From NCBI GenBank assembly GCA_018261735.1, contig JAGTRM010000014.1, forward strand, positions 62,001-126,000: DNA of 64,000 nucleotides, written 5' to 3'. Shown one piece after another: positions 43,353-64,000 of the stretch. Below the pieces are notes generated by a model. That model searched no databases and was not told the origin of the DNA. It saw nothing but the letters and a program-made list of their open reading frames with translations. The position numbers and the translations under genes are program-made. Position 1 is the stretch's first letter; each line of letters begins with the position of its first letter. Origin of the DNA: Pseudomonadota bacterium. GTDB lineage: Bacteria; Pseudomonadota; Gammaproteobacteria; Burkholderiales; Chitinibacteraceae.

Positions 43353-43433
43353 TGTAAAGGGGTGATGTCGGCAAGTCAGTGCAGTGAAAGTCATATCCGC
43401 CTGTCAGGTGCGGCGAGCCCTGCATTATGTGGT

Positions 43434-46221: not shown

Positions 46222-46277
46222 CTCACAGGTGCAAGTCCCGTGGCATTTGAAGTCATTGTCCAGAAAAGGCGATTTCC

Positions 46278-46386
46278 ATTGACCGTCATTCCGGCGTACC
46301 CCAGGGGTATTTCCTTCGGGCACAGGCCGGAATCCAGTTACAACGCTGATTGACAGACTGGACCCCGGCCTGCGCCGGGGTGACGA
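46278..46386. repeat. Dispersed CGTCATTCCGG repeat inside the iron operon
   Basis: It opens with CGTCATTCCGGCGTACCCC and closes with GGCCTGCGCCGGGGTGACG, the same terminal inverted segments as at 19654 and 20012. The middle GGGGTATTTCCTTCGGGC is shared inversely with 11961-12000. It fills most of the only sizeable gap (203 bp) in the eight-gene operon. Confidence 0.8.
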
Positions 46387-46424
46387 ATTAAAAACTTTAT
46401 CGGGCCTATAGCGAGAATTTGAGC

Positions 46425-47366: not shown

Positions 47367-48145
47367 CTTCATTTTCCGCAACCGGTCCTGCACTGGCTTT
47401 CGACGCGGTAAGCCTGACGCTGGGCCGCACCGATATCCTGCAAAACGTGTCGTTCGCGGTGGCGCCGGGCAGCGTGCATGCGCTGGTCGGCCCCAACGGC
47501 GGCGGCAAGACCTCGCTGGTGCGCACGCTGCTGGGGCAGACGCCGCATAACGGCACGCTGAGCCTGCGCTGGCCGGGTAGCGAAGCCGGCGTGATCGCCT
47601 ACGTGCCGCAGGCGCTGGATTTCGACCGCGGCCTGCCGATGACGGTCGACGACGTGATGGCGGCGATGACGCAGCGCCGGCCGGCTTTTCTTGGCCTCTC
47701 GCCGCGCCGCGCGCGCGAAATCGGCGAAGCACTGGCGCGCGTCGGGCTGAAGGACAAACGCCGCCGCCGCATGGGCGCGCTCTCGGGCGGCGAGCGCCAG
47801 CGCGTGCTGTTGGCGCAGGCGCTGATTCCACGGCCCGATCTCGTGGTGCTCGACGAGCCGATGTCGGCGCTCGATGAACCGGGCGCGCGCATTTTTGCCG
47901 ATCTGCTCGCCAGCTGGCGCGCCAGCGGCACCACGGTGCTGTGGATCGAACACGATCTGGCGGCGGTCACGCGCTGGGCCGACCGGGTGACCGGGCTCAA
48001 CCGCCATATCCTGTTCGACGGCAGGCCGGCGGACATGCTGACACCGGAGCGCTTGTTGGGGCTGTTTTCCAGCCAGGCCGCGCCTGCCGCTGCGGTCAAG
48101 GCCGCACGTGACCTGTATCCCGATCTCTTGGAGGAAGTGCAATGA
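47363..48145 (+). CDS. fpvD: Metal ABC transporter ATP-binding protein, FpvD-like
   Basis: A 260-residue ABC ATPase with Walker A GPNGGGKTS, signature ALSGGERQRV, Walker B LVVLDEPMSALD and switch histidine in WIEHDLAAV. It overlaps the substrate-binding protein and permease genes by 4 bp each. It energises uptake of iron freed from the siderophore, as FpvD does. Confidence 0.85.
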   Translation: MTSFSATGPALAFDAVSLTLGRTDILQNVSFAVAPGSVHALVGPNGGGKTSLVRTLLGQTPHNGTLSLRWPGSEAGVIAYVPQALDFDRGLPMTVDDVMAAMTQRRPAFLGLSPRRAREIGEALARVGLKDKRRRRMGALSGGERQRVLLAQALIPRPDLVVLDEPMSALDEPGARIFADLLASWRASGTTVLWIEHDLAAVTRWADRVTGLNRHILFDGRPADMLTPERLLGLFSSQAAPAAAVKAARDLYPDLLEEVQ

Positions 48146-49047
48146 ATGCGCTGTTCGATATCCTGCGCGAACTGGCGCAGGCGGGAGCCACGAGCGGCTG
48201 GCTGCCCGCGTCGCTGGCCTACGGTTTCGTGGTGAATGCCGTGATCGCCGGGCTGATGATCGGCCCGGTGCTGGGCGGGCTCGGCACGCTGGTGGTGGTG
48301 AAGCGCTTCGCGTTCTTTTCCGAAGCGGTCGGCCATGCGGCGCTGACCGGCGTGGCGATCGGCATCCTGCTCGGCGAGCCGTATACCGGCCCCTACGGCA
48401 GCCTCTTCGGCTATTGCCTGCTGTTCGGCATCGGGCTCAATTACCTGCGCAACCGCACCGGCCTTGCGCCCGATACGCTGATCGGCGTGTTCCTCTCTGT
48501 CTCGCTGGCGCTGGGCGCGAGCCTGCTGCTGATCCTGGCCGGCCGCATCAATGTCCACATCCTGGAAAACGTGCTGTTCGGCTCGGTGCTGACCGTGAAC
48601 AACCAGGACTTGCAGGTGTTGCTGATCGTGGCGCTGCTGGTTGCCGCGCTGGCGCTGCCGTTCTACAACCGGCTGATGCTGGCGAGCTTCAATCCGCAAC
48701 TCGCGGCGGTGCGCGGCGTGGCGGTCAAGGCACTCGATTACCTGTTCGTCGGCCTTGTCACGGTCGTCACCGTCGCGGCAGTCAAGGTGATCGGCGCGAT
48801 CCTGGTCGGCGCGCTGCTGGTGATTCCGGCGGCGACCGCGCGCCTGCTGAGCCATTCGCTCAAGGGGTTTTTCCGCTTTTCGGTCGGCGTGGCCACGCTG
48901 GCGACCTTGTCCGGCATCCTGCTGCCGATCCAGTTCGATCTGCCCGTGCCGTCCGGCGCGGCGATCATCCTGTCGGCCGGCATCTGTTTTGTACTGGCAG
49001 CCTTGGCGCGCAGCCTGCTGCCGGGTTTGAGAGGGGAATCCGCATGA
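48142..49047 (+). CDS. fpvE: Metal ABC transporter permease, FpvE-like
   Basis: A 301-residue ABC-3 (ZnuB/MntB) type permease with about eight or nine hydrophobic helices. Recognisable stretches are LGTLVVVKRFAFFSEAVGHA and ALLVIPAATARLLSHS. It is translationally coupled to both neighbours and is the FpvE position of the operon. Confidence 0.85.
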   Translation: MNALFDILRELAQAGATSGWLPASLAYGFVVNAVIAGLMIGPVLGGLGTLVVVKRFAFFSEAVGHAALTGVAIGILLGEPYTGPYGSLFGYCLLFGIGLNYLRNRTGLAPDTLIGVFLSVSLALGASLLLILAGRINVHILENVLFGSVLTVNNQDLQVLLIVALLVAALALPFYNRLMLASFNPQLAAVRGVAVKALDYLFVGLVTVVTVAAVKVIGAILVGALLVIPAATARLLSHSLKGFFRFSVGVATLATLSGILLPIQFDLPVPSGAAIILSAGICFVLAALARSLLPGLRGESA

Positions 49048-49892
49048 GCTTTCTGAAAAAACTGGCCGGCGTTGCCGTACTGCTGACGGTTGCGTTCTGG
49101 AGTACGCCGATTCTCGCCACCACCGTGCTGGCGGGGCATCCCGTGGTGTATGCGCTCGCCAGTGATCTGGTTGCAGGCAGCCCGCTCAAAGTGCTGCGCG
49201 CCGCGCCGGAAAACATCCCGCCCACGCGCCTGACCGCCTACCTGACGAGCCGAGGCGAAGCGGCCTTTGCCGCCGCCGCGCGCGAAGCGGATGCGGTGAT
49301 CACGCTGCGCTCGCTCTGGCCGGAAGACCCGCTCTATCCACTGGCGCGGCGCAGCCATATCCGCATCGTCGAAATCGACGCCGCACAGCCGATCGATGGC
49401 GCGCTGCCGGGGATCGCGCTGCAGGCCGGCAAGGCGCTGCCGAGCCAGCCCTGGCTCGATCCGGTGAATCTCGGACGCATGGCGGACATCCTCGCCAACG
49501 AGTTGGGCCGGTTGGAACCGGCCGCGCAGCCGGCTATCGCCACGCGGCTGGCAAGCATCAAGCGCCGCCTGATCAATCTGAGTGCGCGCAACGAAGCCGT
49601 GCTGTCCACCGTCGATAACGCGGCCGTGGCGAGACTCTCCGAGCGACTCGATTACCTGATTGGCGGGCTGAATCTGGATCAGGTGGCGCTACCCGCCGCG
49701 CAGGATCGAACGGCTTGGCTCGCGACGCACCCCGTGGCCGCGCTGGTGACCGACAGCGAACCCGACGCCGACTGGCTGCAAGCGGCCAAGGCCGCAGGCA
49801 TTCCGCTGCTGGTGCTTGATCCCGTGGCGGCAGATCCCCTGGGGGCGCTGGAAACCATGAGCGCGCGGCTGATTGGAAGCCTGCACCGTTAG
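49044..49892 (+). CDS. fpvF: Second periplasmic binding protein, FpvF-like
   Basis: A 282-residue ZnuA-fold protein with a signal peptide (VAVLLTVAFWSTPILA) followed by TVLAGHPVVYALASDL. It is poorer in histidines than the first binding protein. In P. aeruginosa FpvF, the eighth gene, binds the siderophore itself while FpvC handles metal, so the paired genes here fit that division of labour. The ATG overlaps the permease stop. It is the last gene before a large hairpin. Confidence 0.75.
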   Translation: MSFLKKLAGVAVLLTVAFWSTPILATTVLAGHPVVYALASDLVAGSPLKVLRAAPENIPPTRLTAYLTSRGEAAFAAAAREADAVITLRSLWPEDPLYPLARRSHIRIVEIDAAQPIDGALPGIALQAGKALPSQPWLDPVNLGRMADILANELGRLEPAAQPAIATRLASIKRRLINLSARNEAVLSTVDNAAVARLSERLDYLIGGLNLDQVALPAAQDRTAWLATHPVAALVTDSEPDADWLQAAKAAGIPLLVLDPVAADPLGALETMSARLIGSLHR

Positions 49893-49903
49893 CGCGCAGG
49901 TTC

Positions 49904-49941
49904 GGGATTTCGCACTGGTCGAGAGGCTGGTGCGAAATCCC
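49904..49941. terminator. Hairpin between the convergent fpvF-like and piuC genes
   Basis: GGGATTTCGCAC and GTGCGAAATCCC pair perfectly (12 bp) around a 14-base loop, between two convergent genes. No T run follows on either side, so factor-independent termination is uncertain. Confidence 0.5.
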
Positions 49942-49964
49942 ATCGGCGTGATCTGTAATGTGGG

Positions 49965-50648
49965 TTAAACCTCGGCCCACATCCGCAGCAGGTTGTGATA
50001 GCACGAAGTCAGGCTGACGACGCCGGGCGAATCGATTTGCTCCTGGCGCAGTTGCATCAGGCTCATGTCCATTTCGTACAGCAGGCGGCGGCGTTCGGTC
50101 TCGCGCACCATGCTCTGCAGCCAGCTGAAACAGCAGATGCGCGCGCCGCACGTGACCGGCTCTACGCGGTGCACGCTGGAAGACGGGTAGAGCACCATGT
50201 CGCCGGCCGGCAGCTTGACGCGCGGCGAGCCGAAGGTGTCTTCGATAACCAGCTCGCCGCCGTCGTATTCATCCGGGTCGCTCAGGAACAGCGTGAACGA
50301 GAGATCGGTGCGCACATGCGTCTGGCTGGCGGCATGTGTGCGCACCGCGTTGTCGACATGGTTGCCGAAGGAATTCGTCTCGCCGGTATAGCAGTTGAAC
50401 AAGGGCGGGTAGATTTTCTTGGGCAGGGCCGCGGCGAAGAACAGCGCGCTCGTGCCCAGGTGGTCGAGCACGGTCGTCCTGAGGATGCGCGCGGCTTCGC
50501 CGCTCTCGGGCAATTGCAGGTTGTTCTTGAGCTGAGTGGCCTGTTTGCCTGCGGTGACGCGACCGTCCACCCAGTCGGCGGCTTCGAGCAGTTGGCGGCA
50601 TTGCGCCACGGTGTCGCGGGAGAGGACTTGGGGGAGGTGCAGCAGCAT
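49965..50648 (-). CDS. piuC: PKHD-type Fe(II)/2-oxoglutarate dioxygenase PiuC
   Basis: A 227-residue dioxygenase with iron ligands H97 and D99 (NHVDNAV) and H160 (SSVHRVEPV), and R170 as the likely 2-oxoglutarate arginine. It matches the PiuC/YbiX family regularly found beside Fiu/PiuA catechol-siderophore receptors. Its substrate is not established. It lies 58 bp downstream of such a receptor gene. Confidence 0.92.
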   Translation of the reverse strand: MLLHLPQVLSRDTVAQCRQLLEAADWVDGRVTAGKQATQLKNNLQLPESGEAARILRTTVLDHLGTSALFFAAALPKKIYPPLFNCYTGETNSFGNHVDNAVRTHAASQTHVRTDLSFTLFLSDPDEYDGGELVIEDTFGSPRVKLPAGDMVLYPSSSVHRVEPVTCGARICCFSWLQSMVRETERRRLLYEMDMSLMQLRQEQIDSPGVVSLTSCYHNLLRMWAEV

Positions 50649-50677
50649 AAACTAAACTTTCCTTTCGATGGCAAAAC

Positions 50678-50698
50678 GTCCCCGGGCAAGCCGGGGAC
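50678..50698 (-). terminator. Possible attenuating hairpin between receptor and piuC
   Basis: GTCCCCGG and CCGGGGAC pair around GCAAG. On the minus strand the stem is followed by GTTTT. It may partly end transcription after the receptor gene. Confidence 0.45.
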
Positions 50699-50706
50699 CG
50701 AAGAGG

Positions 50707-52965
50707 CTAGAACTTGAATTCTGCCGTGATCTGCGCCGACCGCTCTGTTCCGGCGACCACATGGCCGCCGTTGTCGTAGACCGACTCGTAATAGCGCTTG
50801 TTCAACAGGTTCATCACGTTGAGCTTCAGGTTGTAAGCCTTCTGTTCGTACGCGATCAGCGCATCCCAACGGATGAAGGCCGGCACTTCATTGGCGACAA
50901 TGGCGTTGGTGCCGGTGCCAATGCCGTAGGCCAAGCGATCGCCCTTCAGGTCCGCGCCGATGCCGAGTTTCCAGCCGCCATCGAGCTTGTAGGTCGTCCA
51001 CAGGTTGGCGGTGTAGCGCGGCGTGTTGCGCGGGCGCATGCCTTTCAGGTTGGCGTTGTGCGCGGTGATCACACCGGTGGTGGCGTTGATGTTGTAGCCC
51101 GGCTCCAGGATTTCCGAGTGCATGAGCGCCACGCCGCCGAAGACTTCCCACTGCCGGGTGATGCGCCCGGCGGCTTCCAGTTCGATCCCGTCGGTGCGGC
51201 GCTTCTTGCTCAAGATGCCGCCGCTGGTTTCCACATCGGTATTGCGCTCCCATTCCTTCTCGGCGCGGTAAATCGCGGCGCGCAAGGAGAGATCGCCCTC
51301 GAACAGCTCCCACTTGGCGCCGAGCTCAATGGTCTGGCTGCGTTCGGGGTCGAAGGCGCGGCCGTTGTCGAGCTGGTAGAGATCGGCGGTCGGGTTGAAC
51401 GAATCGTTCCAGGCCAGATAGTAGGACTGCGTGTCGTCGGGTTGGTACATCAGCCCCGAACGGTAGCTGGTTTCGGCGAATTTCAGCTCGTTGGTGCCGG
51501 TGCTGCTGGCGTAATCGGCACTCAGGTTGTCGCGGCGCAGTCCAAGCAGCACCTTCCAGCCCGGGGTGAATTCGATGCTGTCCTGCGCGTAGACGCCCCA
51601 GGAATTGCCAGTGTAGGTGTTGATGTTGCTGCGGTTCTGGTGGCCGTAGAGGCTGCCGAGGCCACTGGCGCTGGCATCAGTCGAGCCGACGGTGGTCGTC
51701 GGCACGGTGATGCCGGTGGTGCTGTAGCTCCAGCGTGAGGCCTTTTCCTTGAGCAGTTCGAGCCCGATCAACGCTTCGTGGCGCAGGCCGGCGGTATTGA
51801 ACTTGCTGCTGAAATCGGTCTGGCTGGTCAGCGTGTTTTCCTCGCCGCCGCGTGCCTTGACCGAGCGGTTGATGCAGTTGGCATCCGATACCGAGCTCAC
51901 CGTTCCTGCCGCGCAGCCGACATTGCGCAACTGCGGCTGCACCGCCCACAGATCGCGCGTGTAGCTGGCCCGGCGCAGTACGGTTTTCAGTTCGGTATCG
52001 CCGGAAAAGCTGTGCTTGTAGCTCAGGGTGCTGATGTGGGTGGTGTTGTCTTCGTAATCGGACGTGGTGCCATAGAAACGGCTGGCCGGCACATCGAGCG
52101 GGCGTTGTTGGAAGAACGGCACACCGTAATCGGGCGTGTTGTGGGTTTTCAGGTAGTAATGGCCGAGGGTGATCTCATCGCCGGTATCGATGATCCAGCG
52201 CAGCGTGGGCGCAATGCCTTCGCGCTTGGAATGGACGTTGTCGCGCGAGCTGCCGGCATCAGTTTTCATCGCATTGATGCGCAGTGCGGCGCTGTCGCCG
52301 ATCATGCCGTTGACGTCCGCGGTGACACGCTTGTAGTCGTAGCTGCCATAGGTGGCGGTTACGCTGCCGCCATTGAACATGCCCGGTTCCTTGCTGACCT
52401 GGTTGATTACGCCGCCGGCCTGGCCGCGACCGAACAGCATCGAGCCCGAACCGCGCAGCACGTCGATTTGCTCCAGGTTGAAGGTTTCCCGGTTGTACTG
52501 CGCCACATCGCGGATGCCGTCGAGGTACATGTCGCCGAACGAGTAGAAGCCGCGCAGGTTCATGTTGTCGCCGATCCGCCCGCCCTCGCCGGCGTTGAAG
52601 GTCAGCCCCGAAACATTGCTCAGCGCTTCCTTCAGGGTATGGGCGTTCTTGTCTTCCATCAGCTGCTCGCTGATGATGGTCAGCGCCTGCGGCACATCCT
52701 TGGGCAGCTGCACCAGCTTGCCCACGCGCGTGGTGCCGCCTTGCAGCCCTTTCGATTCGCCGATGCGTTCGTCCTGTACCGTGACGGTGGACAGGGTTTG
52801 CTCGTCTTCGGCGTGCGCGCTCTGCGGGCCGAGCAAGACGCCCATCAGCATCGCGCCCAATGGCAGCAGGGGTGTGTTGCGGGCTACCGGTTTTTCCGGA
52901 GCAAGGTTAGTCGCAGCCAGCCGGTTGATGCCCGGCGGATGCTGATCAGCAGTTTGTTTTTGCAT
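50707..52965 (-). CDS. TonB-dependent catecholate siderophore receptor, Fiu/PiuA-like
   Basis: A 752-residue outer-membrane receptor. A long N-terminal region (about 52 residues) ends in a signal-peptide-like stretch, LGAMLMGVLLGPQSAHA. Then come the TonB box (LSTVTVQDE), the plug (LPKDVPQALTIISEQLMED, DMYLDGIRDVAQYNRE, EQIDVLRGSGSMLFGRGQAG) and the barrel ending AQITAEFKF. The plug sequence is typical of Fiu/PiuA receptors, which also import catechol-type siderophore mimics. Linkage to piuC supports this. No clear Fur box was found upstream. Confidence 0.9.
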   Translation of the reverse strand: MQKQTADQHPPGINRLAATNLAPEKPVARNTPLLPLGAMLMGVLLGPQSAHAEDEQTLSTVTVQDERIGESKGLQGGTTRVGKLVQLPKDVPQALTIISEQLMEDKNAHTLKEALSNVSGLTFNAGEGGRIGDNMNLRGFYSFGDMYLDGIRDVAQYNRETFNLEQIDVLRGSGSMLFGRGQAGGVINQVSKEPGMFNGGSVTATYGSYDYKRVTADVNGMIGDSAALRINAMKTDAGSSRDNVHSKREGIAPTLRWIIDTGDEITLGHYYLKTHNTPDYGVPFFQQRPLDVPASRFYGTTSDYEDNTTHISTLSYKHSFSGDTELKTVLRRASYTRDLWAVQPQLRNVGCAAGTVSSVSDANCINRSVKARGGEENTLTSQTDFSSKFNTAGLRHEALIGLELLKEKASRWSYSTTGITVPTTTVGSTDASASGLGSLYGHQNRSNINTYTGNSWGVYAQDSIEFTPGWKVLLGLRRDNLSADYASSTGTNELKFAETSYRSGLMYQPDDTQSYYLAWNDSFNPTADLYQLDNGRAFDPERSQTIELGAKWELFEGDLSLRAAIYRAEKEWERNTDVETSGGILSKKRRTDGIELEAAGRITRQWEVFGGVALMHSEILEPGYNINATTGVITAHNANLKGMRPRNTPRYTANLWTTYKLDGGWKLGIGADLKGDRLAYGIGTGTNAIVANEVPAFIRWDALIAYEQKAYNLKLNVMNLLNKRYYESVYDNGGHVVAGTERSAQITAEFKF

Positions 52966-53146
52966 GGTTGTGTATCTCTCGTGATTTTTTTGTTGTGTGC
53001 AATGCTGTTGTGGGTACTTGATTCAAAGGCGATTTTTCTGGCTACGTTGGCGCTACCTCCTGTGACGAGTGGGACTGTGACAAATCGATGCGTGCGAGGC
53101 GCCGACCGCTGGGGCGGCGCAGAAGTACTCATCAGGGCATGGCCAT

Positions 53147-53177
53147 GGAAGTGGCTTGGGGGAAACAAGCCACTTCC
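53147..53177 (-). terminator. Hairpin after the FcuA-like receptor gene
   Basis: GGAAGTGGCTTG and CAAGCCACTTCC form a perfect 12-bp stem with a 7-base loop, about 25 bp past the receptor stop on the minus strand. There is no strong T run. Confidence 0.55.
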
Positions 53178-53201
53178 TTGCCGTGGTGCGCAAAGCTGAA
53201 T

Positions 53202-55397
53202 TTAGAAATCCATCGTCGCAGTCAGGCTGTAGGTGCGCGCATTGCCCGCCACCAGATAGCCATAACCCGGATAACCGCCGACGGATGCCCAGTAGTCCTT
53301 GTTGAAGACGTTGTCCACGCGGGCGCGCAGCGTCACCATCTTGCCGGCGATATCGGTGATATAGCGGGCGCCGACATCAAAGCGGGTCCAGCCCGGCACT
53401 TTCAGCGTGTTGGCCGCATTGGCATAGCTGGAGCCGGTGCTGACCATGCGCACATCCGCGCTAACGCCGGTCGTGCCCGGGATATCCCATTCCACGCCGA
53501 GATTGCCCTGGGCTGAAGGGACGCCGATCACTTTCTTGCCGTCGGTCGCGCCACCCTTGGTGTTGCGCTGTTCGGCATCGAGCAGGGTCAGGCCGCCCAG
53601 CAGGCGCAGGCCGCGCAGGGCTTCGCCGTAGACCGAGAGTTCCATCCCGCGATGGCGATCTTCGCCGTAGGCACCAAACAGATTGGTGGTCGAATCCAGA
53701 TAGCCGCTGGGCTTGCTGGTGGTGAAGAGCGCGATGCCGGCGCCGAGGTTGCCGGCGTCATACTTCGCGCCGATTTCCTTTTGCTTGGCGACATACGGCG
53801 CCAGGATGGTGCCCGCGTTCAGCGCGGTGCTGCCGGCGGTGCCGCCTGCGGCCAGCGATTCGATGTAGTTGGCATAGAGCGACAGATTCTTCAGCGGTTT
53901 GAACACGATGCCGGCGGCCGGGGTGAGCTTGCTCTTGTCGTATTCGGACGAGAGCGCCCCGTTGTTGTAGGTGTAACTGCGGGTGTGGATATTCTGCTGG
54001 CGTGCGCCCAGTGTCAGCAGGATGCTGTCATTGAACATGACCAGGGTATCCGACAGGGCGAAGCTGGTGAATTGCTCTTTTCGGGTCAGGCCTGGTGATT
54101 CGAGCACGCCGCCGTAATAGCCGATGCTGGATGGGCGTGCTGCGGAGGTGAAATTGTAGATATTGGTCGAGAGCGCGGCCAAGGTGCTCCACTGGTAGGA
54201 ATTCTTGGCTTCAAGCTGGTAGGTGGAGGCGGTGGCGGCGAGCGTGTGCTTGATGCCTGCCGTTTCGAACTTGCCACGCACGCCGGCCTCGCCGCTGATT
54301 ACGCTGTCATGGCGGCGGTTGTCGGCGCGGTAGGTGGTGGCCGCGCCGGTTGCTGCATTGGTCACGGTCGGGTTGGCCAGCGAGTTGTCTTCGTCGGTTT
54401 CGCGTGCGCCAAAGGCCGCCCAGGCGGTGATGTTGTCGGTCAGGTCCACTTCGCCGCGAAAAGCGCCGAAGGTGTCGCGTTCTTTCGAGTAGGACCACGG
54501 CTGGGCAAAGTTGCTGCTGCCCGATGGCGCGGCGGGTACGGCAGTTAAGCTGCTCCCCAGCGTAACGCTCGGGCGGGGCGATTCGAGCGAAAATTCCTGA
54601 TGGCCGATATCCGCCGAGAGGCGCACGTGGTCGCCGCGCCAGTCGTAGCCGAGCGAAACCAGGCTGACATCCTGCTTTTCGTTATCCACGGCGGTATCGC
54701 CGCTGCGGCGCACCGCGTTCAGGCGCAGGCCATGTTCCTTGTTCTCGCCAAAACGGCGGGCGAGATCGGCCGCGTTATACAACTGGCCGCCACTGCTGAC
54801 ACCGGCGGTGATGCGGTTCAGGTCTTCTTCCGGTGCGCGTTTGGGCAAGAGGTTGATCGAGCCGCCAATGCCGCCGCCGGCCGGCGCGGCGCCATTGAGG
54901 AAGGCATTGGCGCCGCGCAGTACCTCGACGCGCTCGAACAGTTCGGCCGACACGTACTGGCGTGGCAGCAAGCCATACAGACCGTTGTAGGCAACTTCGT
55001 CGGAGGAGAGGACAAAGCCGCGGATAAAGTACGATTCCTGGAAATTGCCGTAGCCGCGCGCCACGCGTACGCCCGGATCGTTCTGCAGCACATCGCCCAC
55101 GCTATGGGCGTGTCGATCCTGGATCAGTTCGTTGGTGTAGCTGGTGGTGCTGAACGGCGTATCCATGATGTTTTGCGTGCCCAGAAACCCGACCCGCGCC
55201 CCGGTGGCAACCTGACCGCCCGCATACGGTTTGCTCAAGCCCTCGGCCGAGGCATCGGCGCTGGCGGTCACGGTGACCGTGGAGAGCGTTTTTTCAGTTT
55301 CATCGCTGGTGTTCTGCGCCATTGCAGAAGGAGCCAATGAGGCCAGTGCCAGCTGAATGGCAAGCGCGATTGGCAATCGGGTAATGCGTTCCGGCAT
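53202..55397 (-). CDS. TonB-dependent siderophore receptor, FcuA/FhuA-like
   Basis: A 731-residue receptor with a signal peptide (ALASLAPSAMA), a TonB box (LSTVTVTAS), a plug containing DTPFSTTSYTNELIQDRHA and ESYFIRGFVLSSDEVAYNG, and a barrel ending TYSLTATMDF. The plug resembles ferrichrome-type (FcuA) receptors, but the ligand is uncertain. The ATG at 55397 has AAGGA 7 bases upstream; one 18 bp earlier lacks it. It ends the tonB-exbB-exbD-receptor operon and follows exbD by about 85 bp. Confidence 0.9.
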   Translation of the reverse strand: MPERITRLPIALAIQLALASLAPSAMAQNTSDETEKTLSTVTVTASADASAEGLSKPYAGGQVATGARVGFLGTQNIMDTPFSTTSYTNELIQDRHAHSVGDVLQNDPGVRVARGYGNFQESYFIRGFVLSSDEVAYNGLYGLLPRQYVSAELFERVEVLRGANAFLNGAAPAGGGIGGSINLLPKRAPEEDLNRITAGVSSGGQLYNAADLARRFGENKEHGLRLNAVRRSGDTAVDNEKQDVSLVSLGYDWRGDHVRLSADIGHQEFSLESPRPSVTLGSSLTAVPAAPSGSSNFAQPWSYSKERDTFGAFRGEVDLTDNITAWAAFGARETDEDNSLANPTVTNAATGAATTYRADNRRHDSVISGEAGVRGKFETAGIKHTLAATASTYQLEAKNSYQWSTLAALSTNIYNFTSAARPSSIGYYGGVLESPGLTRKEQFTSFALSDTLVMFNDSILLTLGARQQNIHTRSYTYNNGALSSEYDKSKLTPAAGIVFKPLKNLSLYANYIESLAAGGTAGSTALNAGTILAPYVAKQKEIGAKYDAGNLGAGIALFTTSKPSGYLDSTTNLFGAYGEDRHRGMELSVYGEALRGLRLLGGLTLLDAEQRNTKGGATDGKKVIGVPSAQGNLGVEWDIPGTTGVSADVRMVSTGSSYANAANTLKVPGWTRFDVGARYITDIAGKMVTLRARVDNVFNKDYWASVGGYPGYGYLVAGNARTYSLTATMDF

Positions 55398-55481
55398 GAC
55401 GAATCCTTTATTCATGCGATATTTTGGGTAAAAGGAGCCTCGGCGCTCCGTTTCCGGAGCGCTGAGATCGGGGTGGGTGGA

Positions 55482-55907
55482 TCAGGGTTTCGGGGTATTC
55501 GGGTCGGTGACAAACCCGATGCGGGTCAGCCCTTGGTTGGCAGCAGTCGACATGACTTGCGCCACTTTTTCATAGGGCGTGGTGCGTTCGGCGCCGATAT
55601 GCAGTTCGGGCTGGGGCTGCTTTGCCGCGGCTTCGTTCAAGCGGGAGGCGAGCTGATCGGCCTCGATCTTTTCGCCGTTCCAGAAAATCTGGCTGTTCGC
55701 ATCGATATTCAGCTGGATGGCTTCCTGCTTGCTGACATTGGCGCTCGATGCTGCCTTGGGCAGGTCGACCTTCACCGCATGGGTCAGCAGCGGCGCGGTC
55801 ACCATGAAGATGATCAGCAGCACCAGCATCACGTCGATCAGCGGCACCATGTTGATTTCGGCCAGCGGCTCGTTTTCGTCTGCGCTTTCAAAACTTGCGA
55901 ACGCCAT
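55482..55907 (-). CDS. exbD: ExbD proton-channel subunit
   Basis: A 141-residue protein with one transmembrane helix (MVPLIDVMLVLLIIFMVTAP) carrying the essential aspartate in PLIDVML, and a periplasmic domain. With ExbB it harvests proton motive force for TonB. The ATG at 55907 lies 2 bp past the exbB stop; longer frames upstream are exbB shadow. Confidence 0.94.
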   Translation of the reverse strand: MAFASFESADENEPLAEINMVPLIDVMLVLLIIFMVTAPLLTHAVKVDLPKAASSANVSKQEAIQLNIDANSQIFWNGEKIEADQLASRLNEAAAKQPQPELHIGAERTTPYEKVAQVMSTAANQGLTRIGFVTDPNTPKP

Positions 55908-55909
55908 GC

Positions 55910-56716
55910 TCAGTTCCCCGCGCCGAAGACGGTGGCATGGGCCGGTTGCGGCTGGCGGCCGGCACGGACCAGTGCAAGCACCTTCTCGCTGGTGTCGCGC
56001 GCATCGGTGCGCATCGGCGAAGTCTTGATGCCGGTGGAGAGGAAGGCGAAGACGTCGTAGGCGAACGCGTTCAGGCGCGCCAACGTGTTGCGGTTGATGC
56101 GGGCAAACGCGTTGTAGGCAATCGCGGCCGGAATCGCGACCGCGAGTCCCAATGCGGTCATGATCAGTGCCTCGCCGACTGGGCCGGCCACCTTGTCGAG
56201 CGTGCCCTGACCGGACATGCCGATCGCGATCAACGCGTGGTAGATCCCCCACACCGTGCCGAACAATCCAATGAATGGCGCGGCTGAAGACACGGTCGCA
56301 AGAAAGGCTTGGCCAAACTCCAGGTGCGAACGGTCCTCGTCGATCGCGCGTTTCAGCGCACGCGTCAGCAAGTCGTCTGCCGCGCCGGTATCGACCAGGC
56401 TACGCGCCATGCTTTGCCCATTCTGCTTGTAACGATTGTGCTGCTCGATCGCGGTGAAACCGTGATGAACCAGATGCGAAAACGGCTCGACCGCACCCTG
56501 CTCACGGATGCGCGAGGCAACGGCTTCCAGATTGGGCGCATCCCAGAAATCGGCCAGGAAAGCCCGGCTGCGCCGGTTGATGCGCAAGGCGCGCAAGCCC
56601 TTGGTGACGATCAGATACCAAGTGCCGAGCGATGCCAGCACCATCAATCCCAGTACAAAACGGGCGATGCCGTCGGCATTGGCCAGAAAATGGGCAATGC
56701 CCATCGAATTTTCCAT
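55910..56716 (-). CDS. exbB: ExbB/MotA-TolQ-ExbB proton-channel protein
   Basis: A 268-residue three-helix protein. Family segments are the central helix SSAAPFIGLFGTVWGIYHAL and the third helix region EALIMTALGLAVAIPAAIAYN. The start at 56716 has GAGAGG 5 bases upstream; an ATG at 56704 is an alternative. It follows tonB with a 1-bp gap. Confidence 0.94.
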   Translation of the reverse strand: MENSMGIAHFLANADGIARFVLGLMVLASLGTWYLIVTKGLRALRINRRSRAFLADFWDAPNLEAVASRIREQGAVEPFSHLVHHGFTAIEQHNRYKQNGQSMARSLVDTGAADDLLTRALKRAIDEDRSHLEFGQAFLATVSSAAPFIGLFGTVWGIYHALIAIGMSGQGTLDKVAGPVGEALIMTALGLAVAIPAAIAYNAFARINRNTLARLNAFAYDVFAFLSTGIKTSPMRTDARDTSEKVLALVRAGRQPQPAHATVFGAGN

Positions 56717-56717
56717 A

Positions 56718-57419
56718 TCAACCTCTCAAATTGAAAACAATGGGAACCAGAACCCAGGCCGCGACCGTGTCGCTGCCTTGTCTGGCAGGAATGAATTTCC
56801 AGCGCTGGACGGCCTCTCGCGCCGCCTGATCCAGTCTGCTTGAGCCACTGCCGTTCTTGATCTCTACCTGGGACGGCAAGCCACTGGTTTCGACAAACAC
56901 CCGCAGCGTGACCCGGCCTTCCTCACCCAATCGGCGCGAGATCGACGGGTAGACGGGGGCCGGGTTTTGCAGATAGCCGGCATCAAAGCGCGCAGAGACA
57001 AAGGCGGGCGCCGGTGTTCCTGTCGCTGCCTGAGCGCTTCCTGCCGGCGGACTCTGAGGCTGCGGTGGGGCTGGCGGCGTAAGGGAAGGGGCATTTTCCT
57101 GATGCGCAGCGGGAGCCGGTGTCTGCGCGGCCAGCGTGGGTGCCGGTGTGCGCGGCGCAACAGGTTGTGGCGCGATCTTGGGTTTGATCACCGGCTGGGC
57201 GGGCTTGGGTTGCACTGGTGCCGCCATGGGCAACGCGGTGGGCGCAATCATCTGCACCATCAGTGCTGGCAACGGCGCGGGCATTGAGTGGCTAGCCTGC
57301 GAAAACAGCCAGGCGAAAACGCACAAGTGCATGACCACCACGCAGGCCATCGCCCTGGCGGAGATTCCCTGCGCAAGGTAGGTGCGCTGCGAGGAGGTTG
57401 TTGCTGGATGAGTGGGCAT
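56718..57419 (-). CDS. tonB: TonB energy transducer of the iron island
   Basis: An approximately 233-residue TonB with an N-terminal anchor (CVVVMHLCVFAWLFSQA), a Pro/Ala/Lys-rich spacer (PVQPKPAQPVIKPKIAPQP) and a C-terminal TonB domain (YPSISRRLGEEGRVTLRVFV, AVQRWKFIPARQG). The ATG at 57419 is chosen because an in-frame ATG at 57446 lies inside a Fur-box-like sequence. Neither has a good binding site. It heads the tonB-exbB-exbD-receptor operon. Confidence 0.9.
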   Translation of the reverse strand: MPTHPATTSSQRTYLAQGISARAMACVVVMHLCVFAWLFSQASHSMPAPLPALMVQMIAPTALPMAAPVQPKPAQPVIKPKIAPQPVAPRTPAPTLAAQTPAPAAHQENAPSLTPPAPPQPQSPPAGSAQAATGTPAPAFVSARFDAGYLQNPAPVYPSISRRLGEEGRVTLRVFVETSGLPSQVEIKNGSGSSRLDQAAREAVQRWKFIPARQGSDTVAAWVLVPIVFNLRG

Positions 57420-57433
57420 TCTTGTAATCGTGT

Positions 57434-57452
57434 AATTGAGAATCATTATCTT
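57434..57452. promoter_or_regulatory. Fur-box-like site overlapping the 5' end of tonB
   Basis: On the minus strand it reads AAGATAATGATTCTCAATT, sharing GATAATGAT with the Fur consensus. It starts 15 bp upstream of the proposed tonB ATG. Confidence 0.65.
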
Positions 57453-57965: not shown

Positions 57966-60875
57966 ATGTTGGAACGTCCTGAAGCCTTGTTGCGCGCCTT
58001 CGCCTCGGCCTTTACCCAGCACACGCGTTTGCTGACATTGGCATTCGGCGGTGAGGGCTGGCGGCCAGATATGCTGTTGCCGCACACGTTGAGCGGCCAG
58101 GCGGCGCTTTCCACACTGTATCGCTACGAACTTGACTGCCTCTCGTCCGATGCCCATCTCGAACTCAAGGATCTGCTGGGCTTGCCGGTGCAGGTCGGGC
58201 TGCTCACGCCGACGGGCGACGAGCGGGTGATCACCGGGCTGGTTACCGCCGCGCAGGGTATCGGCTCGAACGGCGGTTTTGCCTCGTACCGGCTGGTGAT
58301 CGAGCCCGCGCTGGCCTTGCTGGCGCAACGCCGCTGCAGCCGGGTTTTCCAGGACATGAACATTGTCGAGATCATCAAGACCGTTCTCGACGAGCACGCC
58401 GCCAATAATCCGGCCATTGCCGCCGCGTTTGCCTTCGATCCGCAACTTGAAACGGACTATTCCGCGCGCAGTTATTGCCTACAATACCGCGAATCCGATC
58501 TGGAATTCATCCAGCGCCTGCTACGCGAAGAAGGCATCAGCTACCGCTTTGCCTTCCGCTCCGGCGATACTCCGCTGCATACCTTGATCCTGTTTGACGA
58601 CCCGTATGCGCTCGATGAATCGCCGCTGGGGCGCATCCGATTCCACCGTGCCGACGGCACCGAGCACGAAGATACCCTGCAGGGTTGGGAGGGCCAGCGC
58701 CGGATTATGCCGCCCAGGGTCAGCCTGGCGAGCTTCGACTACAAGACCGTCGCCACCGAGCAGTCTCAGGACGCCACCACGCAAGATCAGGGAGCAGGCG
58801 GCGAGCAAGCCGGTCGCAGCCTGGAAGACTACGATCCGCAAGGCCCCTACTATGGCGGCCTGAACGAGTTGAGCCGTTACGCCCGTTTGCGCCAGCAGGC
58901 CCATGACCGCGCCGCCAAATCGTTCACCGCCCGCGGCACGGTGCGGGCCCTGAATGTGGGCGAATGGTTCACGCTGAGCGGCCACCCGGTGCACGACCAG
59001 GATCCGCCCGAACAGCGCCAGTTCGTCGTGACCGGGGAAACCCTTGCTGCGGAGAACAACCTGCCCGGCGAATTGATTGCCGGGCTTTCCGGCCTGCTCG
59101 CAGCCGATCCCTCGAGCGGCAATCCCCGCAGCAAGCCACCGTTCCAGAACCAGCTCACCCTGATCCGGCGCGGCATCGCGCTCACGCCGGATTTTGCCCA
59201 TACCGAACACGCCAAGCCCAAAGCCAACGGCGTGCAGACTGCCACGGTGGTCGGGCCTGCGGGGGAAGAAATTCATACCGACGAACTCGGCCGCATCAAG
59301 ATCCAGTTCCACTGGCAACGCCCGAGCGAGCATCCCGAGTTCGGCGCGAATTTCGATGACCGCTCGTCCTGCTGGCTGCGCGTCGCCTACCCCAGTGCCG
59401 GCGCCGGCTGGGGCCAGCAGTTCATCCCGCGCATCGGCCAGGAAGTGCTGGTCGACTTCATCGAAGGCGACATCGACCGGCCCATCATCAAGGGCGCCCT
59501 GTATAACGGAACGCACACCCCGCCCAAATTCAGCGGCGCCGGCAGCATGCCGGCCAACAAGACGCTCTCCGGCATCAAGAGCAAGGAATATAAAGGCAGC
59601 CAGTACAACGAACTCTTGTTCGACGACACCACGAATGAGGTACGCGCCAAGCTATCGAGCGAACATGCCAAGACCCAGTTCAACCTTGGCTATCTCGCTC
59701 ACCCGCGCAGCGAAAGCAAAGCAGAACCCAGAGGCGAAGGTGCGGAACTGCGGACCGACGCCGCCGCCGTGATCCGCGCCGCGCAAGGCATCCTGCTCAG
59801 CACCGATGCAAGAAGTGACGCGAGCGACAGCCAACTCGCGCGCAGCGAGCTGATCAACCACCTGCAAACTGCGCTCGATCTGCTCAAGGGACTGGGCGAC
59901 AGCGCCGAAACCTGCCACGCATTCAAGACCGAAACCAATACGCAGAATGAGTTGAACCAGCAACTCGCCGACTGGGAAAACGGCAGCAACACCGCCCAAG
60001 GCAAAGCCAACGGTCAGAGTCCGATCATCGCGCTGAGCTCACCCGGTGGCATCAGCAGCGCAACCCCGAAAACCAGCACGCACTACGCCGGCGAGCAGCT
60101 CAACCAGATCGCCGGACAACACCTGCAGCAGACCGCCGGCGAGCAGATCACGCTCAACGCAGGACAAGGCATCAGCCTCTTCAGCCAGAAGGAAGGCGTG
60201 CGGTTGATCGCGCATGAAGGCCAGTTCCTCGCGCAGGCGCAGACGGATGACATCGCGATCAACGCGCAGAAAGACGTCAAGATCACTTCATCTACGGAAG
60301 CGATCGATCTCGCCGCAGCGAAGAACATCACCTTCATCACCTCGGGTGGAGCGTATCTAAAGATCGCGGACGGCAAGGTGGAAGTAGGCTGCCCGGGCGC
60401 GTTTACGGTGAAGGCGGGGGGGCATAGTTGGGAAGGGCCGGCCAGTCAGCGTGGCGCTCTGCCTGTTATGCCCTCTGCAGAATTCATAAACAAACACAGC
60501 CTGCGCTTTGCTTTTGAGCATGCAGATGCCATGGCCGAAGACGCTGGCATGGTCGGCAAACCGTTCACGATTACGGATGACATGGGCCAGATTCTGGAGT
60601 CAGGGACGGTGCCCCAATCCGGAGTTCTTCCTAGAGTCATGTTGGATGAAGCCAAGCAGCTGACATTGAGTCTGGGCCAGTCAGGCTGGGAGGTAGTCGA
60701 ATTGCCCTTGTCGAATGACGAAATGGAAGAGGCCGACTCGGATGAGATGACGGGCGATGAAACGGGTTTCGATGATCAGGATGAGGTTGATCTGTTCGAG
60801 CACGATCCGGATGCCTTTTTGCCCAGAGATATCCTGGACGAAATGAACCTCAGCAGCGTGGAAGAGAAGGAATAA
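57966..60875 (+). CDS. vgrG: Type VI secretion tip protein VgrG with C-terminal extension
   Basis: A 969-residue VgrG. The gp27-like part is about 1-390 (HTLSGQAALSTLYRYELDCL, YCLQYRESDLEFIQRLLREE). The gp5/OB region includes DELGRIKIQFHWQRP and GWGQQFIPRIGQEVLVDF. A DUF2345-type repeat region (about 650-830, NAGQGISLFSQKEG) follows. After that comes a 130-residue extension ending in a very acidic tail (EMEEADSDEM, FDDQDEVDLFEHDPD). It forms the spike trimer and should carry the effector encoded 4 bp downstream. AGAGGA precedes the ATG. No other T6SS structural gene is in the window. Confidence 0.93.
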   Translation: MLERPEALLRAFASAFTQHTRLLTLAFGGEGWRPDMLLPHTLSGQAALSTLYRYELDCLSSDAHLELKDLLGLPVQVGLLTPTGDERVITGLVTAAQGIGSNGGFASYRLVIEPALALLAQRRCSRVFQDMNIVEIIKTVLDEHAANNPAIAAAFAFDPQLETDYSARSYCLQYRESDLEFIQRLLREEGISYRFAFRSGDTPLHTLILFDDPYALDESPLGRIRFHRADGTEHEDTLQGWEGQRRIMPPRVSLASFDYKTVATEQSQDATTQDQGAGGEQAGRSLEDYDPQGPYYGGLNELSRYARLRQQAHDRAAKSFTARGTVRALNVGEWFTLSGHPVHDQDPPEQRQFVVTGETLAAENNLPGELIAGLSGLLAADPSSGNPRSKPPFQNQLTLIRRGIALTPDFAHTEHAKPKANGVQTATVVGPAGEEIHTDELGRIKIQFHWQRPSEHPEFGANFDDRSSCWLRVAYPSAGAGWGQQFIPRIGQEVLVDFIEGDIDRPIIKGALYNGTHTPPKFSGAGSMPANKTLSGIKSKEYKGSQYNELLFDDTTNEVRAKLSSEHAKTQFNLGYLAHPRSESKAEPRGEGAELRTDAAAVIRAAQGILLSTDARSDASDSQLARSELINHLQTALDLLKGLGDSAETCHAFKTETNTQNELNQQLADWENGSNTAQGKANGQSPIIALSSPGGISSATPKTSTHYAGEQLNQIAGQHLQQTAGEQITLNAGQGISLFSQKEGVRLIAHEGQFLAQAQTDDIAINAQKDVKITSSTEAIDLAAAKNITFITSGGAYLKIADGKVEVGCPGAFTVKAGGHSWEGPASQRGALPVMPSAEFINKHSLRFAFEHADAMAEDAGMVGKPFTITDDMGQILESGTVPQSGVLPRVMLDEAKQLTLSLGQSGWEVVELPLSNDEMEEADSDEMTGDETGFDDQDEVDLFEHDPDAFLPRDILDEMNLSSVEEKE

Positions 60876-60879: not shown

Positions 60880-62670
60880 ATGGCGAAATGGGTCAAGGCA
60901 CAATACGACAGCGAGCGCAAGATTGCGGAATACACCGATGCGCAAGGCAACCACCTGATCCGTAGCGGTGGCAGCCTGCCATGGCGCCTGAACAATCCGG
61001 GCAATTTGAGGCCATGGATGGAAAAAGGCGTTCCCGCCCCCAGAGCGGTCAAGACGCATATAGGTTTCGCCAAGACCAAAAACAGCAAGGGTGTTGATTG
61101 CTACTTTTTGATCTTTCCGGATTATGAAACCGGGGTGAATGAAATCCGCAATAACCTGAGGCGTCTTTATTCCAAGAAGACCATCAAGGAGGCGATTGAC
61201 GGTTATGCGCCTCCCGTGGAAAACAACACAGAAAAATATATCAGCGATGCGGAAAAGTTTTCCGGGCTGACTCGTGACAGAGTCGTAGGCAAACTGGATT
61301 CATCCGAATTTGAACGGCTGGTCAAAGCCATCATCAAGATCGAAGGCTATGAAGATCAGTCCAAGGGTGCTCGCAAAGAAGCTACCGTAGCAGTCAGTTC
61401 TGTCACCCTTTCGGATGGCAGCAAAGCGATCGCAGGAAAAACCGTTGTTCTGGAACAGGACGGCAAAACCCGACAGGTCACTACTTCCGAAATCGGCCAA
61501 CTTCCCCCGGTTGTGCATCAGGCCAAGTCTGGACCGGTGAAGATCAAGGTGCCAGATGAGAAAGGGTTGCTCAAAACAATCTTGAGTATCGACATGGCTG
61601 CAGAAGCCAAACACTTTCTCCTGGTCTGTGAACAAAAGATCTACCAGGCTTTCTCAGGTCCGCATGCCTCTACCCAAACGAGCAAACAGGACGATCGCAG
61701 CCATGTCTACACGGTTCAGCCTGGCGATACGCTAGCCAAAATCGCAAAAAAATTCAAAACCAGCGTGGCGCGGCTGCAGAAAGACAACCATATCAAAAAC
61801 GCGAAACTGATCCTGGCCGGGCAGCGCTTGATCATCTGCCATGGCAACGCCAGCGCTCCAGCATCAGTGGCGAAGCCTGCTGTATCCGCCAACAAGCCAC
61901 AAAGCGGATCTGCGAAATCGTCAACGTCTTCCAAGGCTCAAAACCAATCGGCCAAAGCGCAGGATCAATCCGCTTCGACAGGAAATGATTTGCGGGAAGC
62001 TGAGGTTGAAAACCTGAGCACATCCCGGACCCGCTCCGGGGAAGGGTCGCCAGCGGCATGGATGCCCTCCGATTCCAGACGGGCGCCGTGGATGGAGGTG
62101 GCTCTATCAGAAGCAAAAAAGTGGAAAGGTGTTACAGAAGAAAAAATTACCCGTAATTATCACAAAGAGTTAGGGCTAAAAGGTAATTTAGTTAAAACCG
62201 CATGGTGTGCTGCCTTTGTGAATTTTTGCTTAAAAACAAGTGGGCAGATTTATGAAAATAGTGCGGGGTCACAGTTTCCGATATTAAGTAAAAAATTTAT
62301 TAAGATTGATAGGCCTGTATATGGATCAATTATGGTGATGAGGAATTATTTTTCAGGCACTAATAAATCACCAGGAAAGGGGCATGCAACATTTGTATAT
62401 GCTATGAAGGGGGATGGAAGAGTTGTTTGTTTGGGTGGGAATCAAGGAGACCGAGTAAAGCTTTCTGCATATGCAATGTCTGGTGTTTCATCGAGATTTG
62501 TATCGGATGGAGTGACTTATGATCAAAGATTTTATGGATTTTATGTTCCGGTGACATACCTTGAATATGCGAGAAATGAAAGGGAATTGGAGGTTGTTGA
62601 TATGGATAAGATTAATAAAGAAATTATTGTAAATGTTTCTAAGCAGGAGTTGGTGGAGAGTACGCGATAA
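60880..62670 (+). CDS. Multidomain T6SS peptidoglycan-targeting effector
   Basis: A 596-residue protein in three parts. At about 30-125 is a phage structural-protein-P5/muramidase-like region (NNPGNLRPW, FPDYETGVNEI). At about 275-319 is a LysM domain (HVYTVQPGDTLAKIAKKF). At about 400-565 is a TIGR02594/NlpC-P60-like amidase with C443 in AWCAAFVNFC, H502 in GHATFVYA and LGGNQGDRV. A low-complexity Ser/Ala/Gln linker joins LysM and amidase. From about base 62100 (residue 407) base composition turns sharply AT-rich, so the toxic domain looks swapped in. It is probably secreted with VgrG to cleave cell-wall peptides. Its stop overlaps the next start. Confidence 0.82.
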   Translation: MAKWVKAQYDSERKIAEYTDAQGNHLIRSGGSLPWRLNNPGNLRPWMEKGVPAPRAVKTHIGFAKTKNSKGVDCYFLIFPDYETGVNEIRNNLRRLYSKKTIKEAIDGYAPPVENNTEKYISDAEKFSGLTRDRVVGKLDSSEFERLVKAIIKIEGYEDQSKGARKEATVAVSSVTLSDGSKAIAGKTVVLEQDGKTRQVTTSEIGQLPPVVHQAKSGPVKIKVPDEKGLLKTILSIDMAAEAKHFLLVCEQKIYQAFSGPHASTQTSKQDDRSHVYTVQPGDTLAKIAKKFKTSVARLQKDNHIKNAKLILAGQRLIICHGNASAPASVAKPAVSANKPQSGSAKSSTSSKAQNQSAKAQDQSASTGNDLREAEVENLSTSRTRSGEGSPAAWMPSDSRRAPWMEVALSEAKKWKGVTEEKITRNYHKELGLKGNLVKTAWCAAFVNFCLKTSGQIYENSAGSQFPILSKKFIKIDRPVYGSIMVMRNYFSGTNKSPGKGHATFVYAMKGDGRVVCLGGNQGDRVKLSAYAMSGVSSRFVSDGVTYDQRFYGFYVPVTYLEYARNERELEVVDMDKINKEIIVNVSKQELVESTR

Positions 62671-63182
62671 TGAGAAATTTTTTGTCATTGCTTGTTGTCT
62701 TGCTGTCAATGTCCTTTGCAAATGCGGGATCCCGTGACTCTTTTATCCTGCTGGTATATCCGTTTGACCAGAAATCAGAAGATATTGTTGCTCCGGTGCT
62801 GAAGAGATATTTCAATAAAAAATTTGATGGAAATCTTTATGTTTGTGATTCAATTAATGAATTGAATTTTGATCTTGTTTATCTAAGAAAGAGGGTGGAT
62901 GTGCTTTCGGTGAGCGATCTAGTGTCTGCAGTGAATGGCGACGATAAGTCTGTTAATTATGTGAAGAAAATTATTGGTACTTATAGGGATGGGGAAATAA
63001 AGAAAGGATTTGATGCTGTTGTATTGTATGAGTTAAATAATGGGCGAGTTGACCTTTTTTCTATTTCTGCGGCAAAAGGGGTGGGCAACAATCATGCAAC
63101 GTCAAACAGTGTTAAAGATGGAGATATATCAAGTGCAATGTGCAGTGTATTAAAATCGTTGCCCTATGCGTATGGTCCTTAA
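62670..63182 (+). CDS. Putative periplasmic immunity protein
   Basis: A 170-residue AT-rich gene starting in the effector stop codon (TAATG). It has a signal peptide (FLSLLVVLLSMSFANA), so the product is periplasmic, where a peptidoglycan amidase effector would be neutralised. The C-terminal half (VSDLVSAVNGDDKSVNYVKK, GFDAVVLYELNNG) is repeated in the next, frameshifted gene. I recognise no named family. The immunity role is inferred from position, export and duplication. Confidence 0.75.
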   Translation: MRNFLSLLVVLLSMSFANAGSRDSFILLVYPFDQKSEDIVAPVLKRYFNKKFDGNLYVCDSINELNFDLVYLRKRVDVLSVSDLVSAVNGDDKSVNYVKKIIGTYRDGEIKKGFDAVVLYELNNGRVDLFSISAAKGVGNNHATSNSVKDGDISSAMCSVLKSLPYAYGP

Positions 63183-63230
63183 CAGGCTGATGAAGAACCC
63201 AAGGTGGTGCTTGGTTTTCATCAGCCTGTT
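63181..63230 (+). terminator. Strong inverted repeat after the immunity gene
   Basis: AACAGGCTGATGAA and TTCATCAGCCTGTT pair perfectly over 14 bp, with an inner AACCCAAG/CTTGGTT pairing. It starts right at the stop codon and is followed by TAAACG. It is a likely terminator or mRNA-end stabiliser separating the two immunity copies. Confidence 0.7.
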
Positions 63231-63305
63231 TAAACGAAAATTTGGAAAGTAGGTTTCTGTGGGTGGCGTGAAGAAGGTGAATAAGCAATCTTAAGGGCGG
63301 CGGCT

Positions 63306-63874
63306 GTGAATTATAAAAGTATTATATTGGCAATAATGGGTGGGGCGGCATATTTTATGCAGTGTGAAGTATTTGCAGGTGAGCGGGGATATTATGCGGT
63401 AGCTGTTGATATTAGTGGTGTGCCAAAATTATGGGGCTCTCCTGCTTATATGTATTACACGGATGATTCTGTGGTAAGTGATGAAAATATGCCAGATCCT
63501 AATGAAAAATGTTGGAGTAAGAGAAAATCGGGTGATTATAGAATATCGATTTTTGCAAGAAAAAAACGCCGCCTGAATTGACTGTTGAGGTTGCTAGGTC
63601 TGTTTTTAATGGGGATAAAGAAGCGATCGATAAAACAAGGAATATTCTTAGGAGATATAAAGATAATAAAGTTGGTTCTGGTTATGATGGGCTGTACATC
63701 ATTAAGTATGTTAATGCAACTTTGACAGTAATGGGAGTGAGTGCAAGAACCGGGAAGACAAAAACAATCACCAATGTAATCATTGACTCAAACGACAAAA
63801 AGAAAGCTGCGCTGGCACTGGATAAAGCCTTATGCCTTGCTGCACAGCCATTTGACGAAGGTTTCCAGCCATAG
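63306..63874 (+). pseudogene. Second immunity-like gene, split by a frameshift at an A7 run
   Basis: Two frames, 63306-63581 (GTG start, signal peptide, 91 residues) and 63578-63874 (98 residues), join into one protein of about 189 residues if the reading frame slips -1 at seven A residues (63560-63566). The second part aligns with the end of the preceding immunity protein: VARSVFNGDKEAIDKTRNIL with VSDLVSAVNGDDKSVNYVKK, then GYDGLYIIKYVN with GFDAVVLYELNN. It is therefore a diverged duplicate. It may be a pseudogene, a sequencing error in the homopolymer, or a gene using programmed frameshifting. Confidence 0.7.
63559..63567 (+). other. A7 slip site within the second immunity-like gene
   Basis: In the upstream frame the codons read AGA AAA AAA CGC, which contains the heptamer A AAA AAA suited to -1 tandem slippage. 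After slipping, translation continues ACG CCG CCT GAA into the homologous downstream frame. No strong downstream stimulatory stem was identified by eye. Confidence 0.5.
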
Positions 63875-63886
63875 GTCAAATTTATA

Positions 63887-64000
63887 ATGCGACACTTAAA
63901 TTTATTGCTCTCTTTGTTGTTTATTCTTTTCATTTCCTCCGCTCACGCCGCTTGCCTTGGCTACGATCCCGAAAAAGTCACGCTGTACGGTAAATTGGTT
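63887..64000 (+). CDS. Secreted small protein, DUF4431-like (3' end outside window)
   Basis: The first 38 codons of a protein with a signal peptide (LLSLLFILFISSAHA) followed by ACLGYDPEKVTLYGKLV, which resembles the start of DUF4431 proteins. It begins 12 bp after the frameshifted immunity gene and is probably cotranscribed. It may be a third immunity or accessory protein of the T6SS island. The identification rests on about 17 mature residues and is weak. Confidence 0.55.
   Translation, partial: MRHLNLLLSLLFILFISSAHAACLGYDPEKVTLYGKLV

What the first reader, a model, noticed from the sequence alone, without database searches (positions are those of the whole stretch)
63306..63874. Duplicated immunity gene interrupted at an A7 slippery run
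The second copy has diverged from the first and is split precisely at A AAA AAA. A -1 slip restores a full-length homologous protein with signal peptide. Slippage could set the amount of full-length protein; alternatively it is a recent pseudogene or a sequencing error. An orphan immunity copy could protect against related effectors of competitors.
Basis: seen in the sequence. Interest (0 to 1): 0.65.

Follow-up and report, generated by a model that had tools for sequence, protein, structure and literature searches.

The report
Broken orphan T6SS immunity gene
This is a leftover antidote gene, sitting behind a bacterial cell-wall-attacking toxin of the type VI secretion system that it no longer matches, and it is interrupted by a frame break in a run of seven A's, most likely a recent inactivating mutation rather than a regulatory device.

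Summary
A 190-codon gene at 63306-63874 is broken into a 0-frame part (63306-63581) and a -1-frame part (63542-63874), and the frames meet at A7 (63560-63566). Read across the run, it matches uninterrupted homologues on both sides of the break. "Duplicated immunity gene" is wrong, though: copy 2 shares only 24% identity with copy 1 and belongs to another subfamily (97/96 support), cognate to different LysM-TIGR02594 effectors in other genera. A congener (Formivibrio MAG) has the same vgrG and effector N-half, but a different toxin domain and immunity gene, and neither copy. Aquabacterium lacunae carries one such effector and four immunity genes, including an intact copy-2-type orphan. So copy 2 is a leftover immunity gene from effector-cassette replacement, as described in Vibrio cholerae. 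The A-run is explained by coding: three intact relatives have A6, A7 or A8 at the same site, encoding Lys-Lys, with no frame break. All 15 other family members are uninterrupted, and no downstream structure or upstream Shine-Dalgarno was found. In-phase A AAA AAA occurs in 8 of 21 intact A7+ ORFs sampled here. Best reading: a recently frameshifted orphan immunity gene. A sequencing error cannot be excluded; programmed slippage is unlikely.

The parts
57966..60875 (+). VgrG spike protein, 969 aa, shared with the congener L038
   Evidence: TIGR03361 411 bits and Pfam Phage_GPD/T6SS_Vgr/DUF2345; 83% nt identity to L038 from 58904
60880..62670 (+). T6SS effector, 596 aa: conserved N-half, LysM, C-terminal TIGR02594 (CHAP/NlpC-P60-like) toxin domain
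   Evidence: LysM 8e-15; TIGR02594 82.9 bits, above cut-off 70.55; only TIGR02594 gene in the genome
62097..63923 (+). Variable cassette: effector C-terminal domain + copy 1 + hairpin + copy 2; GC 0.38 against 0.59 upstream
   Evidence: No DNA match between the conserved flanks in syntenic L038 except a 93-nt, 71% piece of the toxin domain; flanks match at 83-90%
62670..63182 (+). Copy 1: resident immunity protein, 170 aa, signal peptide, overlaps the effector stop (ATGA)
   Evidence: Homologues directly 3' of LysM-TIGR02594 effectors in other genomes; clade with L046b and L040
63181..63230 (.). Strong hairpin after copy 1 (terminator-like, weak U-tract), separating copy 2 from the effector operon
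   Evidence: -30.9 kcal/mol, z -5.9; unique in the genome
63306..63581 (+). Copy 2, 0-frame part: signal peptide and first conserved Cys (residue 69); ends 15 nt after the A7
63560..63566 (+). A7 run, in phase A AAA AAA, at the site that codes Lys-Lys in intact relatives
63542..63874 (+). Copy 2, -1-frame part: D..GYD core, second conserved Cys (residue 177) and terminal Pro
63888..64000 (+). 5' part of a secreted DUF4431 protein (continues beyond the window); conserved right flank of the cassette from 63924
   Evidence: DUF4431 1.4e-10; 88% nt identity to L038

Best explanation
Copy 2 is an orphan type VI immunity gene, left in place when recombination replaced the effector's C-terminal toxin domain and its cognate immunity gene with the present domain plus copy 1. 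It has recently taken a frame-breaking mutation in an A-run that codes a lysine pair in this family. The 91-aa product made by normal translation keeps the export signal but loses the core and one of the two conserved cysteines, so it should give little or no protection. Shown: the frame break, homology across it, the subfamily assignment, the variable cassette and the lack of a cognate effector. Inferred: loss of function, that the break is recent, and that copy 2 once protected against a G348/L064-type effector.
For: Uninterrupted copy-2-type genes lie directly 3' of LysM-TIGR02594 effectors in G348 and Chimaeribacter L064. Copy 2 groups with these and L046a at 97/96 support; copy 1 groups with L046b and L040 at 90/90. 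In syntenic L038, DNA identity stops at 62096 inside the effector and resumes at 63924, and neither copy is present. The genome has a single TIGR02594 gene. Aquabacterium L046 has one effector and four immunity genes of two families, including an intact copy-2-type orphan. The A-run site codes K-K in intact relatives L040 (A8), L053 (A7) and L045 (A6). The conserved Cys pair is split between the two frames. Copy 2 has no other stop or frame break and keeps 9 of 10 near-invariant residues across both frames, which fits a recent break. The sequential-displacement model that predicts such orphans is published (PMC5361080).
Against: No reads or second strain are available, so the run length itself is unverified. 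Conservation of residues in both frames is equally expected if the gene is intact and the assembly is wrong, or if slippage keeps it working. Copy 2 sits on a long branch (2.03), so its exact place inside its clade is unsure. Loss of function is not tested.
Confidence: 0.62

Rival explanations
1. Assembly or sequencing error in the homopolymer: the gene is really an intact orphan immunity gene.
For: Breaks at homopolymers are the typical error; no other damage in 190 codons and 9 of 10 near-invariant residues kept. Frameshift sequencing artefacts in T6SS effector genes have been reported in PacBio assemblies (PMC7702109).
Against: Of 52 homopolymers of 7 or more in 407 kb of this assembly, 42 lie inside open frames of at least 150 codons; six of the nine others were read and none showed a broken recognisable gene. 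So homopolymer errors are not general here.
Confidence: 0.22
2. Functional slippage (ribosomal -1 frameshifting or transcriptional slippage) sets the amount of full-length immunity protein.
For: The run is an in-phase A AAA AAA heptamer. Transcriptional insertions concentrate in A/T runs and rise exponentially with run length (PMC5574713), so some leak is plausible.
Against: All 15 other family members are uninterrupted, three of them with A6-A8 at the same site. No stable downstream structure (z -0.3 to -1.3) and no upstream Shine-Dalgarno. The same in-phase heptamer occurs in 8 of 21 intact A7+ ORFs, including the neighbouring effector. [quoted passage not shown]
Confidence: 0.08
3. Replication-slippage on/off switch (phase variation) at the A7 run.
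For: A homopolymer at the break; intact relatives have 6 to 8 A at this site.
Against: Seven A's is short for a contingency locus (own knowledge), similar A7 runs are common in intact genes here, and the run codes a family Lys-Lys.
Confidence: 0.05

Closest known systems
Orphan T6SS immunity genes and immunity arrays of Vibrio cholerae (Kirchberger et al. 2017, PMC5361080)
   Same: Immunity gene 3' of an effector-immunity pair, of a different type from the resident one, with a cognate effector only in other bacteria; conserved upstream genes and a replaced effector domain.
   Different: Different host (Chromobacteriaceae) and effector family; the orphan is frame-broken. The terms frameshift and pseudogene do not occur in that paper.
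VgrG-linked LysM-TIGR02594 (NlpC/P60) effectors of Stenotrophomonas maltophilia (PMC13055248)
   Same: LysM in the middle, TIGR02594 at the C-terminus, VgrG-linked, with a small neighbouring immunity gene.
   Different: There the putative immunity gene lies between vgrG and the effector; here the immunity genes follow the effector.
Programmed -1 frameshifting at A AAA AAA/AAG motifs (dnaX, insertion sequences; own knowledge)
   Same: In-phase slippery heptamer between two overlapping frames.
   Different: No stimulatory elements, and no conservation of the frame break in any homologue.

Membership tests
Orphan T6SS immunity gene | Homologous to cognate immunity proteins of effector-immunity pairs elsewhere | tested here: met
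   G348 and L064 copies directly follow their effectors; clade support 97/96
Orphan T6SS immunity gene | No second, cognate effector in the genome | tested here: met
   One TIGR02594 gene only, adjacent to copy 1; the assembly is 93.8% complete, so a missed gene is possible
Orphan T6SS immunity gene | Distinct in type from the resident immunity gene, not a duplicate of it | tested here: met
   24% identity; different clades
Orphan T6SS immunity gene | Lies in the 3' variable region of a T6SS effector cluster with effector displacement | tested here: met
   Variable cassette 62097-63923 against syntenic L038
Orphan T6SS immunity gene | Protects against a non-self effector | not testable with these tools
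   Needs expression and challenge
Programmed -1 ribosomal frameshift | Slippery heptamer in phase | tested here: met
   A AAA AAA at 63560; also in 8 of 21 intact A7+ ORFs sampled
Programmed -1 ribosomal frameshift | Stimulatory downstream structure or upstream Shine-Dalgarno | tested here: not met
   z -0.3 to -1.3; no AGGAG-like stretch in the 17 nt before the run. Pseudoknots were not modelled
Programmed -1 ribosomal frameshift | Frame break conserved among homologues | tested here: not met
   15 of 15 other members uninterrupted
Pseudogene | Open frame broken relative to intact relatives | tested here: met
Pseudogene | Further disabling changes | tested here: not met
   No other stop or shift in 190 codons; consistent only with a recent break
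Sequencing error | Frequent homopolymer breaks in the same assembly | tested here: not met
TIGR02594 effector family | Score above the curated cut-off | tested here: met
   82.9 bits against 70.55

The most novel reading that the evidence does not exclude
The orphan immunity gene is kept working at a low level by slippage at the A-run, giving cheap bet-hedged protection against a displaced effector still carried by relatives.
Probability: 0.07. Interest if true: 0.6.

Novelty: new member of a known kind. Interest (0 to 1): 0.3.

Why it matters
It extends the effector-displacement and orphan-immunity model from Vibrio to LysM-TIGR02594 peptidoglycan effectors of beta- and gammaproteobacteria. 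It defines an immunity family with no Pfam, NCBIfam or PDB match, and seems to catch an orphan antidote at the moment of decay, which bears on how long such genes stay useful.

Tried and rejected
No close relative of copy 2 in 43 family, 399 order or 369 class genomes, in the genus of G348 (18 genomes), or in plasmids; a genome-contig scan with the C-terminal half and a viral-contig scan with copy 1 also found none. A dN/dS test on copy 2 was therefore not possible. Genome-wide homopolymer error was rejected. A dispersed-repeat origin of the hairpin was rejected: it is unique. The fold of the family (copy 1 model, pLDDT 86.5) has no PDB match at E <= 0.001, and the profile search of PDB sequences gave only chance hits. 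An independent function for the -1 half from its own TTG at 63578 was considered and judged unlikely: no signal peptide and only one of the two conserved cysteines. The whole genome was not available as a file, so a 407-kb sample was used.

Full report
OBSERVATION. The gene at 63306-63874 is split as described. The 0-frame ORF (63306-63581) carries a signal-peptide-like N-terminus; the -1 frame is open from 63542 to the stop at 63874; the run AAAAAAA lies at 63560-63566 in phase as A AAA AAA. The two frames overlap only at 63542-63580, so any shift must lie there.

HOMOLOGY ACROSS THE BREAK. Searches in the order found intact homologues in G348, G156 and G096, each directly behind a LysM-TIGR02594 effector. 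Read across the run, copy 2 matches the G348 protein over residues 59-189 with 32% identity, E=1e-14, which spans the break at residue 87. The family has two invariant cysteines (copy 1 C59 and C158); in copy 2 one lies in each frame. In the copy 1 model (mean pLDDT 86.5) the break falls just after the strand at residues 67-71, before the remaining three strands and three helices. Neither half looks self-sufficient.

NOT A TANDEM DUPLICATION. Copies 1 and 2 share 24% identity, with the significant match in the C-terminal part. In a 16-member tree copy 2 groups with G348, Aquabacterium L046a and Chimaeribacter L064 (97/96), and copy 1 with L046b and Aquitalea L040 (90/90). Copy 2 has a long branch, so its place inside its clade is unsure.

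THE LOCUS. The closest syntenic record is a Formivibrio sp. MAG, L038. DNA identity of 83% runs through vgrG and the effector up to window 62096, stops at the toxin domain, and resumes at 63924 in the DUF4431 gene and at 64401 in the Amidase_3 gene. Between these flanks L038 has another TIGR02594 domain and an unrelated 199-aa immunity gene; neither copy 1 nor copy 2 is there. The window cassette has GC 0.38 against 0.59 upstream. Aquabacterium lacunae L046 has one effector followed by four immunity genes of two families, including an intact copy-2-type gene and a copy-1-type gene. L054 and L062 each carry two related genes in a row downstream of the effector, and L053 and L064 carry genes of two different families. 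The window genome has a single TIGR02594 gene, so copy 2 has no cognate effector here. This matches the published model in which incoming effector-immunity modules displace the effector and leave the old immunity gene behind (PMC5361080; orphan loci not being duplications of the resident gene is also reported in PMC7702109).

WHY THE A-RUN IS THERE. At the aligned site Aquitalea L040 has TTA AAA AAA ATG (A8), Pseudoduganella L053 CAA AAA AAG (A7) and Noviherbaspirillum L045 ATA AAA AAG (A6), all in uninterrupted frames that encode Lys-Lys. The run thus follows from the protein sequence, and such runs are hot spots for indels (own knowledge).

PROGRAMMED SLIPPAGE. The heptamer is in phase, but so it is in 8 of 21 intact A7+ ORFs sampled in this genome, including the neighbouring effector at 61746. 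Downstream folding is no better than shuffles, no Shine-Dalgarno-like sequence precedes the run, and no homologue shares the frame break (15 of 15 uninterrupted). A low, non-programmed leak remains possible (PMC5574713).

ERROR OR MUTATION. In 407 kb of this assembly 42 of 52 homopolymers of at least 7 lie in open frames of at least 150 codons; six of the nine others (apart from copy 2) were read and none shows a broken recognisable gene. This argues against general homopolymer error but does not exclude a single one. Copy 2 has no other stop or shift and keeps 9 of 10 near-invariant residues across both frames, so if the break is real it is recent; about 4.6% of random substitutions in it would create a stop.

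CONCLUSION. Copy 2 is a recently frame-broken orphan immunity gene (0.62); a sequencing error over an intact orphan gene is the main rival (0.22); functional slippage (0.08) and phase variation (0.05) are unlikely.

Noticed in passing
L046:6652-9586: Aquabacterium lacunae: one LysM-TIGR02594 effector followed by four immunity genes of two unrelated families, an orphan-immunity array outside Vibrio.
   Followed up: partly
window 62670-63182 and homologues: The immunity family has no Pfam or NCBIfam match above cut-off, and its confident model (pLDDT 86.5) has no PDB match at E <= 0.001.
   Followed up: partly
window 63181-63230: Near-perfect 50-nt hairpin (-30.9 kcal/mol, z -5.9) between the two immunity genes, unique in the genome and with a weak U-tract.
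   Followed up: partly
L002:7888-9503 (window 63888 onward): DUF4431 protein, Amidase_3 and LprI lysozyme-inhibitor genes flank the effector cassette in both congeners; in L038 a DUF4424 gene and two unassigned ORFs lie between the DUF4431 and amidase genes.
   Followed up: no
window 63255-63296: Short open stretch ending about ten bases before copy 2 (VGGVKKVNKQS*) that could be the tail of a displaced effector; too short to test.
   Followed up: no
window 41107-57446: Three TonB-dependent receptor genes, a zinc-type ABC transporter and a TonB/ExbB/ExbD set lie upstream of the vgrG island (judged from the translations).
   Followed up: no
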